The notes beneath the pieces are model-generated. The model saw nothing but the letters and a program-made list of their open reading frames with translations. It was not told where the DNA came from and did no database searches. Shown piece by piece: positions 19,997 through 23,276 of a DNA stretch of 64,000 nt. Source of the DNA: Parasphingorhabdus marina DSM 22363 (GTDB lineage: Bacteria > Pseudomonadota > Alphaproteobacteria > Sphingomonadales > Sphingomonadaceae). Position numbers and translations under genes: made by a program. The first letter of the stretch is position 1. Every line of letters begins with the position of its first letter. The DNA lies in NCBI RefSeq assembly GCF_900128895.1, contig NZ_FSQW01000001.1, forward strand, positions 496,001 to 560,000, read 5' to 3'.

Positions 19997-20923
19997 CTAT
20001 ATTTTCGCGCGAACCACACATTCTTGAAGTTTGGTTGGCAATGAATTTATCTTGATGACTGCACGCTTAAGTTGAGTTTTGGTAACAGTCTGAGTTCCGG
20101 AAAGCATAAATTTGGTTTCGTCCATCTCACCGGCGATTTCTTCGCCATCAGACGCACCCTCTTGTTCTTCCCTTTTGAGCTCCTTCACTTGTGCAATAAC
20201 ACCTGCAGCATCGTAAACAATTTCATTATTTAGCCGATGTGCAACAACGCGATCTACGTTCAACAACGCAGAATAAATCAAATCAAAATATTGAACTGAG
20301 TAAGGGATCTCAATCGTTGATTTGCCATTAGCAGAATCATTGAGCAATTTGGTGTTCTGCGCCTCAGAGTTGCCATTACCCGTCAGCATTTCACCTACTT
20401 TGACCGACAATGGATCGATACCAACTGCTACAGTTTTGATGCATGTTAGGGCATCAACACCACTCAAAAGTATATTGGCTTTTTGTTGAGGTCCATAATA
20501 TCCGTTGCCAGCAGACAGGGCAGCGCTTGTGATTCCCGCCGCCACCGTTGCGTCTGGGTTGCCATCGAGTGCAGCGACTGCCGGAGCACCTATAGCGGCT
20601 ATCAAAGCCGGAAATTCAAATGACTGGCGTCCATTTGCGGCACCTTTTGCTGCACAGCGATAAGCAAAAATGAAGTTATCGGTTAGTTGTCGAGCACCGT
20701 CGACGGTGTCTTGCGGAATAGGAATATGATTTTCAGTGCTAGTCGCTTGGTTGGCTTTCTGCCCAGGCTTTTTTCCGATGGTCTTGATTAGGCGAGGGGC
20801 ACAATCGACGCCGGAAGCAGTCGTTCGGTAGTGTGATTCAACCGATGGGGGCGCAAAACTTAACGTGGAACATGCGCTGGTAAGTGGCAACACAAATAAA
20901 GACAGCCCATGTACAGGTTTCAT
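19997..20923 (-). CDS. Orphan putative lipoprotein in a lower-GC patch
   Basis: 308 residues. The N-terminus is hydrophobic and ends PLTSAC, an imperfect lipobox with Cys18. The rest is Asn/Ser/Lys-rich with a long central Ala/Gly segment (FPALIAAIGAPAVAALDGN) and a C-terminal half containing SVQYFDLIYSALLNVDRVVAHR and a coiled-coil-like KELKREEQEGASDGEE. No family is recognised. Base composition is clearly less GC-rich than its neighbours and codons ending in A/T are frequent, suggesting transfer. It stands alone, next to the tRNA-like cluster. Confidence 0.65.
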   Translation of the reverse strand: MKPVHGLSLFVLPLTSACSTLSFAPPSVESHYRTTASGVDCAPRLIKTIGKKPGQKANQATSTENHIPIPQDTVDGARQLTDNFIFAYRCAAKGAANGRQSFEFPALIAAIGAPAVAALDGNPDATVAAGITSAALSAGNGYYGPQQKANILLSGVDALTCIKTVAVGIDPLSVKVGEMLTGNGNSEAQNTKLLNDSANGKSTIEIPYSVQYFDLIYSALLNVDRVVAHRLNNEIVYDAAGVIAQVKELKREEQEGASDGEEIAGEMDETKFMLSGTQTVTKTQLKRAVIKINSLPTKLQECVVRAKI

Positions 20924-21529
20924 TTTCGCCCCCCCTTTTGGTTAAATTGTATTCACACGGGTCGGAAAAATAGTCAACTAATTCTGTATTTGTATCTACT
21001 TCAACTGAGAATTCTATTGTTCTAATATCCGGTGATTTGGTGATTCGTTTAATGATAAGATTAGATCTTGCCTCCGATATTTTGCAAAGCCGACTGTAAG
21101 GGCTTATATTAAAACAATTTTTCCGATACTACTAATTTGATTAAATCACAAAGTATTCGTTTCGCAAAGCCTTCCGAAACATAACTATCTGTCTGACCTC
21201 TTCAAAGCCTTGCGCGTCGCGCCAGCCATGGCTCACCATTTTTTGGGCAATGCGTCGGAGGCCATCTCGGTGTAGCCACCCGCTCACGCCCGGTGTTCCG
21301 ACGCCGCCAAATAGTATCAAATGAAACCACCTGCCGCTCACATCCCCCGCTTCATCGCAAACACCGCCCCTCCCCATTGCCAAACCGGAAGCGAGTCACC
21401 AATGGCCCGCCTCCCCGATCGATGGATGGGGCGGACGTCAACGGTTTGGGTTTCATGAAACCCGCCCGCATGCGGTGTCTCTGATACCGGCATGTACGGA
21501 TGCTGCTTTGTCTTTGGTTTGGTACCACA
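20924..21529. other. Gene-poor stretch upstream of the tRNA-like cluster
   Basis: The first 250 bases are AT-rich like the lipoprotein gene; GC content rises again after about 21180. I see no convincing gene. An 80-codon minus-strand frame (21141-21383) could be the remnant of a gene but has no recognisable domain or ribosome-binding site. A perfect GGGTTT-CATG-AAACCC inverted repeat lies at 21448-21463, followed by CCGCATGCGG. A possible rightward promoter lies at 21082-21110. Confidence 0.5.
21082..21110 (+). promoter_or_regulatory. Possible sigma-70-type promoter toward the tRNA-like/slipin region
   Basis: TTGCAA (21082-21087) and TATATT (21105-21110) are 17 bases apart. The stretch is AT-rich, so chance matches are common. 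If used, transcription would start near 21117 and run through the tRNA-like cluster into the slipin gene. Confidence 0.3.
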
Positions 21530-21603
21530 GGGTTTGTAGCTCATTGGGAGAGCGCCGGGCATCACGCCCGGAGGTAGCGGGTTCGATCCCCGTCTGACCA
21601 CCA
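21530..21603 (+). tRNA. tRNA-like body with UCA at the anticodon position (degenerate)
   Basis: A cloverleaf can be drawn: D stem GCTC/GAGC (21539-21553), anticodon stem CCGGG/CCCGG (21555-21571), variable AGGTA, T stem GCGGG/CCCGT with loop TTCGATC (21577-21593). The anticodon loop is CATCACG, which places A instead of the universal U at position 33 and UCA at 34-36. The acceptor stem, GGGTTTG against CTGACCA, pairs at only five of seven positions. ACCACCA follows. It resembles a tRNA-Asp body in outline but lacks its GTC anticodon. It is probably a tRNA-derived RNA or pseudo-tRNA rather than a working tRNA. Confidence 0.45.
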
Positions 21604-21673
21604 TGGATAGCTCAATTGGTAGAGCACAAGACTGTTAATCTTGATGTCGCAGGTTCGATTCCTGCTCCAACGT
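21601..21673 (+). tRNA. tRNA-Asn(GTT)-like body with defective acceptor stem
   Basis: All three arms are perfect: D stem GCTC/GAGC with loop AATTGGTA, anticodon stem CAAGA/TCTTG with loop CTGTTAA (anticodon GTT), variable ATGTC, T stem GCAGG/CCTGC with loop TTCGATT. Only the inner acceptor pairs TGGA/TCCA (21604-21607 with 21666-21669) form, plus one outer C-G pair; positions 2 and 3 do not pair. No CCA is encoded at the expected place. The body overlaps the CCA-like end of the preceding tRNA-like element by 3 bases, so there is no spacer for normal 5' and 3' processing. Confidence 0.55.
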
Positions 21674-21737
21674 TGGCCTCAAAAACCAACCCAGCACTCA
21701 TAATGCTGTTTGAGAAAATACCGGGTTCGGGGACCGG
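21667..21737 (+). ncRNA. Third tRNA-like segment with Met-type anticodon hairpin
   Basis: CAGCA-CTCATAA-TGCTG (21692-21708) is a perfect anticodon arm with the CTCATAA loop of tRNA-Met. Upstream GTTGG/CCAAC (21672-21690) could act as a D-arm replacement, and CCGG-GTTCGGGGA-CCGG (21721-21737) as a T-arm-like hairpin. Alternatively CTCAAA (21678-21683) pairs with TTTGAG (21709-21714), extending the central hairpin and excluding the D-arm form. It abuts the Asn-like body directly. The hairpins are seen; a tRNA identity is only suggested. Confidence 0.35.
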
Positions 21738-22058
21738 CATGTGAACGGCGCGGCGTCTGCGGCAGGCGGGAGTCTTCGGATTTCCAAACGCCGGGGGCAA
21801 AGCACCCGCCACCATGCCAACTGGTTCGATTTGTCCTGAAGACAACGCCGGACCGTGGCCGAGAAAGACGGGTTTTCGGACCCGTCGGATCCGCCGCGGG
21901 GCCTGCCATGTCCGCTCTTGCCGGGTCCGCCAGGCGGCATGCCACCGGTCCCCGGATCTTTTTGATCGCGGGAACCCCGTGACGGGGAACAACCTGCACC
22001 AATTCCGGTGCGGGACAAATGAAAGGAGATTGGCGTGAGCTGATACTTGAAGGTGAGT
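21738..22058 (+). ncRNA. Structured leader between tRNA-like cluster and slipin gene
   Basis: No credible reading frame is present, but stable hairpins follow one another: GGGAGTC-TTCG-GATTTCC (21768-21785, UUCG tetraloop), GACGGGT-TTTCGG-ACCCGTC (21867-21886), CCCCG-TGA-CGGGG (21975-21987) and GCACC-AATTCC-GGTGC (21996-22011). An isolated T-loop motif GGTTCGATT at 21823-21831 repeats that of the Asn-like body. The stretch may be the slipin 5' UTR or an independent non-coding RNA. Confidence 0.45.
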
Positions 22059-23216
22059 ATGATGTTGTATTTGATTGACAAGCTGATGGGCCGCACCCGC
22101 GTGACCATCAATGAAAACGAACGGGCGATCTGGTTCTACAAGGGCGAGGTGCGCGGTATCCTGGGAGCGGGCGAGCATGTTCTGCCGAACCGCCGGAACC
22201 AGGTGCGGATCGAGCGGATAGCGCTGAACAGCGCAGCTTTTGTCTCGGTCTATGAAAAGGCGCTTTTTGAAAAAGCGGCGGATCAGGCCGAAGCGCAGCT
22301 GACCCAGTATCGGACCGGAAGCGACGAGATTGCTGTCATCGAATGCGACGGACGGATTCATTCTGTCCTCTCACCGGATAGCAAGCTCACCGTCTGGACC
22401 GATGCCGGACCGTGGAAGGCGGACGTCATCGCGCTGGAACAGGATCCGGTGATCGCACCGGCCTTGCTGCAGCGGCTGATGAAAGCCGGTGTCGCCAGCC
22501 TGCTCAGCCAGGTCCGGATTGTCGAAGTCGACAAGGGTCAGGTTGGTCTGGTGACGGTCGATGGCCGGATGACCGGTGAGCTGACGCCGGGTGTCACTGG
22601 CTACTGGATGGTCGGTCAGAAGGTCGCCGTGAAGATCGTGGATCTGACGCGGCAGCCGCTTGACGTGACCGGCCAGGAGCTTTTGACCAGGGACCGGGTC
22701 ACGCTGCGGATCAACGTCGCAGCCGAATACCGGGTCGTCGATCCGGTCAAGGCTGTGACCGAAGTGAAGGACTTCACCGATGCGCTGTACCGGGCGCTGC
22801 AATATGCGTTCCGGAAGACGCTGGGCGCGATGACGCTTGACCAAATCCTTGAAAGCCAAGTGACGGTCGATGCCGAAGCCGCAACGAAGGTGCGGTCCGA
22901 CATGGCGGCCATTGGTCTGGAAGTCACCGACATTACGCTCAAGGACGTGATCCTGCCGGGCGAAATGCGGGACATCCTGAACCAGGTTGTTTCTGCCCAG
23001 AAGGCGGCAGAGGCGAACGTCATCAAGCGGCGGGAAGAAACGAACGCGACGCGCTCGCTTCTGAACACCGCGAAGGTGATGGCCGACAACCCGGTCATGT
23101 TGCGGCTGAAGGAGCTCGAAGCTCTGGAAAGCATCGCCGGCAAGGTCGACAAGCTGACGGTGACCAACGGTACCGAAGGCTTGATGAACGATCTCGTCAA
23201 ACTGTCCGGTGACTAG
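22059..23216 (+). CDS. Slipin / SPFH (band 7) family protein
   Basis: The product has 385 residues from the ATG at 22059 (GAAGGTGAG just upstream; the next codon is also ATG). A short hydrophobic N-terminus leads to RVTINENERAIWFYKGEVRGILGAGEH, and after a variable insert the SPFH domain runs VEVDKGQVGLVTVDGRMTGELTPG ... RVTLRINVAAEYRVVDPVKAV ... ALYRALQYAFRKTLGAMTLDQIL, then a helical KAAEANVIKRREETNATRSLLNTAK coiled coil. Slipins oligomerise on membranes. The insert-containing form resembles, from memory, slipins found in RNA-repair gene clusters. Tandem tRNA-like elements upstream fit that link, but rtcB and rtcR are not in the window. Confidence 0.85.
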   Translation: MMLYLIDKLMGRTRVTINENERAIWFYKGEVRGILGAGEHVLPNRRNQVRIERIALNSAAFVSVYEKALFEKAADQAEAQLTQYRTGSDEIAVIECDGRIHSVLSPDSKLTVWTDAGPWKADVIALEQDPVIAPALLQRLMKAGVASLLSQVRIVEVDKGQVGLVTVDGRMTGELTPGVTGYWMVGQKVAVKIVDLTRQPLDVTGQELLTRDRVTLRINVAAEYRVVDPVKAVTEVKDFTDALYRALQYAFRKTLGAMTLDQILESQVTVDAEAATKVRSDMAAIGLEVTDITLKDVILPGEMRDILNQVVSAQKAAEANVIKRREETNATRSLLNTAKVMADNPVMLRLKELEALESIAGKVDKLTVTNGTEGLMNDLVKLSGD

Positions 23217-23245
23217 GTCACCGTCCTGACGGCCGGATAAAAAGG

Positions 23246-23276
23246 AGGGCGCGGGGAGAAATCCCTGCGCCCTTTT
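23246..23276 (+). terminator. Intrinsic terminator after the slipin gene
   Basis: GGGCGCGGG (23247-23255) pairs with CCCTGCGCCC (23263-23272) around a GAGAAAT loop with one bulged T, followed by TTTT. It lies 30 bases after the slipin stop and closes the transcription unit. Confidence 0.85.

What the first reader, a model, noticed from the sequence alone, without database searches (positions are those of the whole stretch)
21530..23276. Spacer-less tRNA-like array upstream of a slipin gene: possible new RNA-repair-type system
Two tRNA-like bodies and a third hairpin with a Met-type anticodon loop are packed directly against one another, followed by a structured leader, a slipin gene and an intrinsic terminator. 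Established knowledge: slipins and tRNA-mimicking RNAs (YrlA-type Y RNAs) occur together with rtcB, rtcR or the Ro60 homologue rsr in bacterial RNA-repair operons. Here none of those enzymes is in the window, so a slipin plus tRNA-like RNA unit may be a stripped-down or new form. The link is inference.
Basis: partly seen in the sequence, partly recalled or inferred. Interest (0 to 1): 0.75.

Follow-up and report, generated by a model that had tools for sequence, protein, structure and literature searches.

The report
Swappable anticodon-mimic RNA before slipin gene
Just before a membrane-type (slipin) gene this bacterium carries a conserved RNA leader studded with imitation tRNA anticodon arms whose three-letter anticodons differ from species to species; related leaders sit inside known RNA-repair operons, so it may bait or sense enzymes that cut tRNAs.

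Summary
Window 21413-22043 is a conserved leader RNA: 5' domain, two abutting tRNA-likes, two anticodon-arm hairpins, 3' domain and a one-codon minigene before the slipin. ARAGORN calls tRNA-likes in 74 of 80 homologous leaders, once in the other 524 kb. Pairs covary. Above threshold, Rfam shows only tRNA there; YrlA stays below.

The surprise is anticodon turnover: in 45 Mesorhizobium leaders the arm stems vary by 0.00 bits, two anticodon triplets by 1.29 and 1.59. Of 75 distinct loops, 23 equal real tRNA anticodon loops (13.0 expected, P 0.0006).

Of 11 non-alphaproteobacterial genome loci with this slipin, 10 have a tRNA call in the leader and 10 encode RtcB beside it; the 80 alphaproteobacterial loci show no RtcB, RtcR or RtcA within the stretch held, and the window's genome lacks RtcB, RtcR and TROVE. 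So "stripped-down RNA-repair unit" is supported; YrlA membership is not.

Best guess: a decoy or sensor panel for anticodon nucleases. Nothing here shows expression or activity; the mechanism is inference.

The parts
21413..21505 (+). 5' domain of the leader RNA (hairpin 21413-21431, GACGTCAACGG 21434-21444, hairpins 21448-21463 and 21469-21494, then TACGGATGCTG)
   Evidence: alignment A1 of 43 leaders: 15 predicted pairs, 7 with compensatory changes; CM R1 finds it in 4 of 385 alphaproteobacterial genomes, the three others each with a slipin 59-61% identical next to it
21530..21603 (+). tRNA-like 1, ends in an encoded ACCA; anticodon arm 21555-21571 with non-standard loop CATCACG
   Evidence: ARAGORN, Rfam tRNA 36.9 bits, coordinates
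21601..21673 (+). tRNA-like 2; anticodon arm 21627-21643, loop CTGTTAA (Asn-GTT type); short acceptor stem (TGGA/TCCA), no CCA end
   Evidence: ARAGORN, Rfam tRNA 62.3 bits; pair counts of its arms 99-100%
21672..21690 (+). hairpin 3 (GTTGG-CCTCAAAAA-CCAAC); in relatives usually a 4-7 bp stem with a 7-nt anticodon-type loop
   Evidence: here the loop has 9 nt, so in the window itself it is not a clean anticodon loop
21692..21708 (+). hairpin 4, anticodon-arm mimic, loop CTCATAA (Met-CAT type) at 21697-21703
   Evidence: stem 100% paired with changes on both sides in 44 leaders; loop equals the loop of real tRNA-Met of this genome
21724..21958 (+). 3' domain closed by a long-range helix (GGTTCGGGGACCGG with CCGGTCCCCGGATC)
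   Evidence: alignment A2 of 43 leaders: 36 predicted pairs, 24 with compensatory changes
22022..22043 (+). Shine-Dalgarno (AAAGGAG) plus one-codon minigene GTG-AGC-TGA (22035-22043)
   Evidence: SD + start + 1-3 codons + stop in 79 of 87 leaders, 7.8 expected from mononucleotide shuffles; in 45 Mesorhizobium leaders start 0.05, second codon 0.68, stop 0.00 bits
22059..23216 (+). slipin (SPFH/Band 7) CDS, 385 aa from ATG 22059
   Evidence: PF01145 E 3e-29; AlphaFold model with two tandem beta domains (12-125, 152-298) and long helices 301-362; Foldseek best hit human stomatin E 2e-15
23246..23276 (+). probable intrinsic terminator GGGCGCGGGG-AGAAAT-CCCTGCGCCC-TTTT
   Evidence: by eye; not listed by the scan

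Best explanation
The leader is a tRNA-mimic RNA that displays a panel of imitation anticodon arms in front of a slipin. Shown by sequence: a conserved, covarying RNA of about 630 nt with two tRNA-likes and one to three extra anticodon-arm hairpins; frozen stems and fast-changing, often tRNA-identical anticodon loops; a tight link to one slipin subfamily; and, outside the Alphaproteobacteria, residence in rtcR/rtcB RNA-repair operons. Inferred: the panel is bound or cut by enzymes that act on anticodon loops, most likely anticodon nucleases made by competitors, phages or the cell's own toxins, and so shields the real tRNAs (decoy); turnover of the triplets follows the changing specificity of those nucleases. 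In rtc operons the RNA would be made together with the RtcB/RtcA repair enzymes when RtcR senses cut tRNAs; in the window's lineage RNA and slipin are kept without the repair enzymes. The slipin probably forms a membrane-bound ring or cage and may hold or use the RNA; the minigene probably tunes slipin translation to the state of translation.
For: Anticodon-loop mimicry: of 75 distinct loops in three array slots 23 equal real anticodon loops of three reference genomes (13.0 expected when columns are dealt anew, P 0.00055; 17.2 when only triplets are dealt anew, P 0.016), and G37 goes with G36 as in real tRNAs (Fisher P 0.0005). Turnover: 45 Mesorhizobium leaders, stems 0.00 bits, triplets 1.29 and 1.59; 11 leaders of one genus with RtcR-type loci, loops 0.52-0.89 bits against 0.052 in the rest of array and 5' domain (e.g. 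hairpin 3 loops CTCCCAC, CTGTTAA, CTGTCAA, CTTTCAC in near-identical RNA). Panel-like: 33 different triplets; in 29 distinct three-slot arrays no triplet occurs twice (2.66 expected, P 0.035). Context: RtcB in 10 of 11 non-alphaproteobacterial genome loci, Pfam RtcR/RtcB/RtcA/RlaP, Citrobacter rtcR-leader-slipin-nucleotidyltransferase. [quoted passage not shown]
Against: No expression, binding or cleavage data. Many loops are not exact tRNA loops: 26 of 34 distinct loops in tRNA-like 2 do not match, and 11 of its 82 loops lack U33; tRNA-like 1 mostly has 5-6-nt or odd loops in Mesorhizobium and in the window; the window's hairpin 3 has a 9-nt loop; so only two of the window's four arms are exact tRNA loops. 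With triplets alone dealt anew the excess is modest (23 against 17.2). Distinct loops are treated as independent although the loci are related. No anticodon nuclease was matched to any leader. E. coli and Citrobacter leaders keep only one T-arm, so the panel is not essential everywhere.
Confidence: 0.45

Rival explanations
1. Fuse or sensor: the anticodon arms are meant to be cut. Cleavage of the leader by an anticodon nuclease changes its fold or makes 5' fragments with 2',3'-cyclic phosphate, which releases slipin translation (minigene, stand-alone form) or feeds RtcR (rtc form).
For: The array is a cis leader of the slipin in the loci read, with the minigene between it and the slipin in 79 of 87; RtcR is activated by tRNA fragments cut in the anticodon loop (PMC7790460); a sensor would also gain from several different loops.
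Against: In rtc operons the RNA would be made only after RtcR is active (sigma-54-like boxes precede the array in 4 of 15 loci by pattern, more by eye), too late for a first sensor; the minigene is absent from the Pseudomonas-type leaders read.
Confidence: 0.2
2. Neutral loops on a structural RNA: the tRNA-likes serve folding, RNase P processing or protein binding; anticodon loops drift because nothing reads them.
For: tRNA-like 1 loops are often degenerate; U33 is lost in 11 of 82 tRNA-like 2 loops; the loop excess over the triplet shuffle is modest. Y32, U33 and R37 could be kept merely for the U-turn.
Against: Loops match real tRNA loops above column shuffles, G37 follows G36, extra hairpins that are anticodon arms only (no tRNA body) are kept with the same loop rules (hairpin 4: 61 of 61 Y32 and U33, 59 of 61 R37; the picker favoured such loops), and triplets within an array do not repeat.
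Confidence: 0.2
3. Y RNA of the YrlA kind: tRNA-mimicking RNA that guides a Ro60/Rsr protein and PNPase.
For: YrlA is a tRNA mimic in rtc operons (PMC7790460); weak sub-threshold matches to its model.
Against: 21.6 bits in the window and 36.2 at best against a threshold of 69; none above threshold in 18 further loci; no TROVE protein in the genome.
Confidence: 0.04
4. Autoregulation by tRNA-binding enzymes (a synthetase, a modification enzyme or the CCA enzyme binds the mimic), as in the E. coli thrS operator (recalled).
For: Anticodon arms are typical binding sites of such enzymes.
Against: The triplet changes between close relatives in the same slot and the regulated gene is a slipin; one specific synthetase cannot be meant.
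Confidence: 0.06
5. Ordinary or decayed tRNA genes next to a slipin by chance.
For: ARAGORN and Rfam score them as tRNA.
Against: 74 of 80 homologous leaders have them across changing neighbours, with covarying stems.
Confidence: 0.02

Closest known systems
YrlA Y RNA of rsr-yrlBA-rtcBA operons (Rfam RF02553)
   Same: tRNA-mimicking noncoding RNA in an rtc RNA-repair operon; competitive inhibition of an anticodon nuclease has been suggested for it (PMC7790460, section 17)
   Different: score far below the family threshold; no Ro60/TROVE partner in this genome; several anticodon arms with changing triplets, own 5' and 3' domains, slipin partner
rtcR / rtcBA RNA-repair operons
   Same: homologous slipins with tRNA-like leaders lie in such operons in other classes
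   Different: the window's genome has neither RtcB nor RtcR; only RNA plus slipin remain
Long tRNA arrays, e.g. the trn operon of Anabaena PCC 7120
   Same: clustered tRNA-type RNAs tied to translational stress; rtcB and a slipin gene (alr0740) are in the same TrcR regulon (PMC10272220, passages)
   Different: those are 26 tRNA genes; here two tRNA-likes with defective acceptor stems plus bare anticodon arms
Type III toxin-antitoxin RNAs (ToxI, recalled)
   Same: works-like analogy: an array of RNA units that titrates an endoribonuclease
   Different: no toxin gene beside it was recognised, units are anticodon arms, not pseudoknots; no homology tested
Stomatin/HflK-HflC/major vault protein family
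   Same: fold of the slipin: stomatin E 2e-15, HflK/C, prohibitin, major vault protein E 7e-11
   Different: two tandem SPFH-like domains; global TM-scores to the query only about 0.4 and pTM 0.57

Membership tests
YrlA Y RNA (RF02553) | score at or above the Rfam gathering threshold (69 bits) | tested here: not met
   21.6 bits in the window, best 36.2 in L040, none in 18 further loci
YrlA Y RNA (RF02553) | Ro60/Rsr (TROVE) protein encoded in the genome | tested here: not met
   PF05731: 0 matches in the window's genome
rtc RNA-repair operon | RtcB ligase and RtcR regulator next to the unit | tested here: not met
   absent from the whole genome and from 80 homologous alphaproteobacterial loci; met in related loci of other classes: RtcB 10 of 11, RtcR 5 of 11
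Functional tRNA gene | 7-bp acceptor stem, CCA end and a 7-nt anticodon loop with U33 | tested here: not met
   tRNA-like 1: CCA but mismatched acceptor stem and loop CATCACG; tRNA-like 2: good loop but about 4 acceptor pairs and no CCA (sequence; charging not testable)
Slipin / SPFH (Band 7) protein | Pfam PF01145 above its cut-off | tested here: met
   102.6 bits, cut-off 23.6; stomatin fold
Known anti-phage defence system (PADLOC) | slipin matches a PADLOC model | tested here: not met
   0 models at E <= 1
Any Rfam 15 family other than tRNA | gathering-threshold match in the leader | tested here: not met
   permissive searches of window 21300-22100 and of nine loci gave only tRNA above threshold inside the leaders
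Anticodon-nuclease decoy | RNA binds or is cut by an anticodon nuclease | not testable with these tools
   needs biochemistry

The most novel reading that the evidence does not exclude
A widespread class of bacterial leader RNAs carries an evolvable panel of anticodon-arm decoys, a molecular 'sampler' of the cell's own tRNAs that is rewritten triplet by triplet in an arms race with anticodon nucleases. It is made with RtcB/RtcA repair enzymes in rtc operons and has become a self-standing RNA-slipin system in Alphaproteobacteria, where a stomatin/vault-like slipin assembly may house the RNA. Related leaders occur in Pseudomonadota and possibly Bacillota (Subdoligranulum record).
Probability: 0.4. 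Interest if true: 0.92.

Novelty: new variant of a known kind. Interest (0 to 1): 0.8.

Why it matters
tRNA cleavage is a weapon of bacteriocins, phage-exclusion systems and toxins, and the purpose of the bacterial rtc system and of its slipin is still debated. If the leader is a decoy or sensor panel, the triplets in each genome would report which tRNAs that lineage has had to defend, turning a genome-sequence pattern into a readout of anticodon-nuclease attack, and it would give the unexplained slipin of rtc operons an RNA partner. The claim is directly testable with short RNAs and known nucleases. I found no description of it: full-text searches for slipin with tRNA-like (0 papers), slipin with RtcB and tRNA-like, slipin with RtcB and operon (neither on this), RtcB with SPFH and tRNA (1 listing, unrelated by title), anticodon nuclease with decoy and tRNA-like (unrelated by title). 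Burroughs and Aravind 2016, the likeliest place for an earlier mention, is not held.

Tried and rejected
YrlA identity; ordinary tRNA genes (acceptor stems); a repair enzyme in the own genome; a known defence system; phage origin (phages: 3 partial matches, none covering 80% of the slipin); conserved neighbour genes within Alphaproteobacteria as partners (neighbours differ between genera). tRNA-SeC reading of tRNA-like 1: its loop is not a real anticodon loop. A sigma-70 promoter right before 21413 was not found by the scan in the window. A JmjC-gene search of the genus for an empty site showed only that this neighbour is patchy (13 of 32 genomes) and was not followed up.

Limits of method, to be read with the counts. 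Slots: T-loop anchors were found in 85 of 87 leaders (not L064, L101); I set the anchor by hand for L038, L102, L104-L107 and L110; downstream hairpins were picked with a preference for Y32-U33 loops, which inflates those two frequencies but not the match of triplets with nucleotides 36-38. The first slotting was faulty and discarded. The first reference of 49 loops (20 of 75, P 0.00095 and 0.023) lacked tRNA-Ile; adding a third genome gave 59 loops. Distinct loops are not independent by descent. Alignments A1 and A2 hold the window plus 42, A3 the window plus 43, of 64 non-redundant leaders (divergent, short or gapped ones left out); hairpin 3 is misaligned in A3 (62.6% paired). One search left out L247 and L253 of 13. 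The motif count (20 of 20, 2.9 expected) uses a pattern chosen after seeing these sequences. The first-listed RNA-model search used strict filters and one sampling per genus mostly.
Full report
1. What is there. The window lies in a 3.55-Mb genome. Two tRNA-likes abut at 21530-21603 and 21601-21673, followed by hairpins at 21672-21690 and 21692-21708. Comparison of 87 leaders (80 from the search for related loci, 7 from the own genus search) shows that these lie in the middle of a longer conserved RNA: a 5' domain (21413-21505) and a 3' domain (21724-21958). RNAalifold on 43 leaders gives 15 pairs, 7 with compensatory changes, for the 5' domain and 36 pairs, 24 compensatory, for the 3' domain. 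For tRNA-like 2 and hairpin 4 a named structure was counted on 44 leaders: acceptor remnant, D, anticodon and T arms and hairpin 4 are 99-100% paired with changes on both sides in each of these helices; hairpin 3 is misaligned (62.6%). Rfam 15 has no family for the RNA: only tRNA passes threshold in the leaders.

2. How tight is the link to the slipin? ARAGORN finds a tRNA-like 250-750 nt upstream in 74 of 80 loci, two in 52, and one call in the other 524 kb. Of the six without a call, L064 ends at the contig edge, and L033, L090, L096, L102 and L110 show tRNA-like sequence in the alignment (L102 also by Rfam, 58 bits). A covariance model of the 5' domain alone finds 4 of 385 alphaproteobacterial genomes, own included; each of the other three has a slipin 59-61% identical next to it. 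Neighbouring genes differ between genera. In the own genus the long slipin is patchy: the window's genome and 6 of 31 relatives.

3. The anticodon turnover. In 45 Mesorhizobium leaders the anticodon stems of tRNA-like 2 and the stem of hairpin 4 do not vary (0.00 bits), the triplets vary by 1.29 and 1.59 bits; hairpin 3 loop 0.46, tRNA-like 1 loop 0.57, rest of the leader 0.30. In a non-alphaproteobacterial genus where 13 of 25 genomes carry the unit, 11 leaders show 0.87, 0.89 and 0.52 bits in the three loops and 0.052 in the rest of array and 5' domain; there hairpin 3 reads CTCCCAC, CTGTTAA, CTGTCAA or CTTTCAC in otherwise near-identical RNA. As a reference I read the anticodon loops of the tRNAs found in three genomes (own, a Mesorhizobium, one of that genus): 59 distinct loops. 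Of 75 distinct 7-nt loops in the three slots 23 are identical to a real one; 13.0 expected when each column is dealt anew (P 0.00055), 17.2 when only triplets are dealt anew (P 0.016). In the 58 with Y32-U33 it is 23 against 12.3 (P 0.00005) and 16.6 (P 0.0066). G37 goes with G36 (5 of 7 G37 loops, Fisher P 0.0005), as in real tRNAs. Other 7-nt hairpin loops downstream: 1 of 20 distinct. The triplets cover 33 types, and none of 29 distinct three-slot arrays repeats a triplet (2.66 expected, P 0.035). Against: 26 of 34 distinct tRNA-like 2 loops are not exact, 11 of 82 lack U33, tRNA-like 1 is often degenerate, and in the window two of four arms (Asn-GTT, Met-CAT) are exact.

4. The minigene. 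Between RNA and slipin 79 of 87 leaders have a Shine-Dalgarno, a start codon, one codon (three CGA codons in 8 Rhodobacteraceae-type loci) and a stop; 7.8 expected by shuffling. Start and stop are conserved while the codon varies. Eight leaders lack it (L007, L068, L095-L098, L101, L103). It is not seen in the rtc-type leaders printed. A role in coupling slipin output to translation is inference.

5. The rtc connection. The slipin N-terminus finds 20 of 398 Pseudomonadota genomes. I fetched 16 of the 20 loci (all but the window and three that resemble the Mesorhizobium ones). Of the 11 from other classes, ARAGORN calls a tRNA-like in the leader of 9 and Rfam of one more (L221, 29.9 bits); L214 shows only a T-arm by eye. 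RtcB lies in 10 of the 11, RtcR in 5, RtcA in 3 (Pfam on ten proteins, including RlaP in L220). Among five plasmid-collection records with the slipin, RtcB is in 3 (Burkholderia, Photobacterium, weakly Subdoligranulum) and RtcR in 3. In 1618 of 5426 E. coli genomes one place covers at least 80% of leader plus slipin, but the E. coli leader keeps a single T-arm. Sigma-54-like boxes precede the leader in 4 of 15 loci by pattern, in L214, the E. coli, Citrobacter and Pseudomonas-type leaders by eye. A shared 5' element (GGTGC...TATGCC type) is in 20 of 20 such leaders, 2.9 expected, with a pattern chosen after the fact. The 80 loci of alphaproteobacterial or unplaced records have no RtcR, RtcB or RtcA at E 1e-10 in the up to 7 kb held, and the window's genome has no RtcB, RtcR or TROVE.

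6. The protein. AlphaFold (29 sequences, pLDDT 82.5, pTM 0.57) gives two tandem SPFH-like beta domains and long C-terminal helices. Foldseek: stomatin, HflK/C, prohibitin, erlin, major vault protein. An assembly into a ring or cage is inference from these families.

7. Mechanism. [quoted passage not shown] passages, section 17). A leader that shows several, changing anticodon loops fits a decoy panel better than any single-specificity binder; a cut-sensitive fuse is the main rival, neutral loops on a structural RNA the sober one. None is tested. I put the decoy at 0.45.

8. Novelty. tRNA mimicry in rtc operons is known; this RNA family, its anticodon panel, the minigene and the RNA-slipin unit without repair enzymes were not found in Rfam 15 or in the held literature, but the key comparative paper could not be read. 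Hence 'new variant of a known kind', with a bolder reading kept at 0.4.

Noticed in passing
L167 (Mesorhizobium amorphae record, 233 bases): Two adjacent tRNA-Thr(TGT)-type calls, the second with a weak anticodon stem (47 bits); a possible decayed or mimic tRNA away from the slipin.
   Followed up: no
L102, L104-L110: Rhodobacteraceae-type leaders replace the one-codon minigene by start-CGA-CGA-CGA-stop, a run of a slowly decoded codon (recalled) kept in 8 loci.
   Followed up: partly
L104 and L105, upstream of tRNA-like 2: An extra hairpin with stem GTGG/CCAC carries loop TTTAGGT in one and TTTGGGT in the other of two related genomes, again a Leu/Pro-type swap.
   Followed up: partly
L068: The only Mesorhizobium leader whose minigene start reads AAG instead of ATG.
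   Followed up: no
L102, L104-L110: Extra T-arm-like segments (GGGTTCGACTCCC) without a tRNA body follow or precede tRNA-like 2, so other tRNA arms may be mimicked too.
   Followed up: no
L220 and L224, 1-3 kb upstream of the slipin: Clusters of further, apparently real tRNA genes (3 and 6 ARAGORN calls) close to the rtc-type locus.
   Followed up: no
L236 (E. coli) and L237 (Citrobacter): Slipin followed by a nucleotidyltransferase gene without rtcB in the stretch; an RlaP-type repair variant with a reduced leader.
   Followed up: partly
window 19997-20923 (-): ORF of 308 aa beside the leader with no Pfam match.
   Followed up: no
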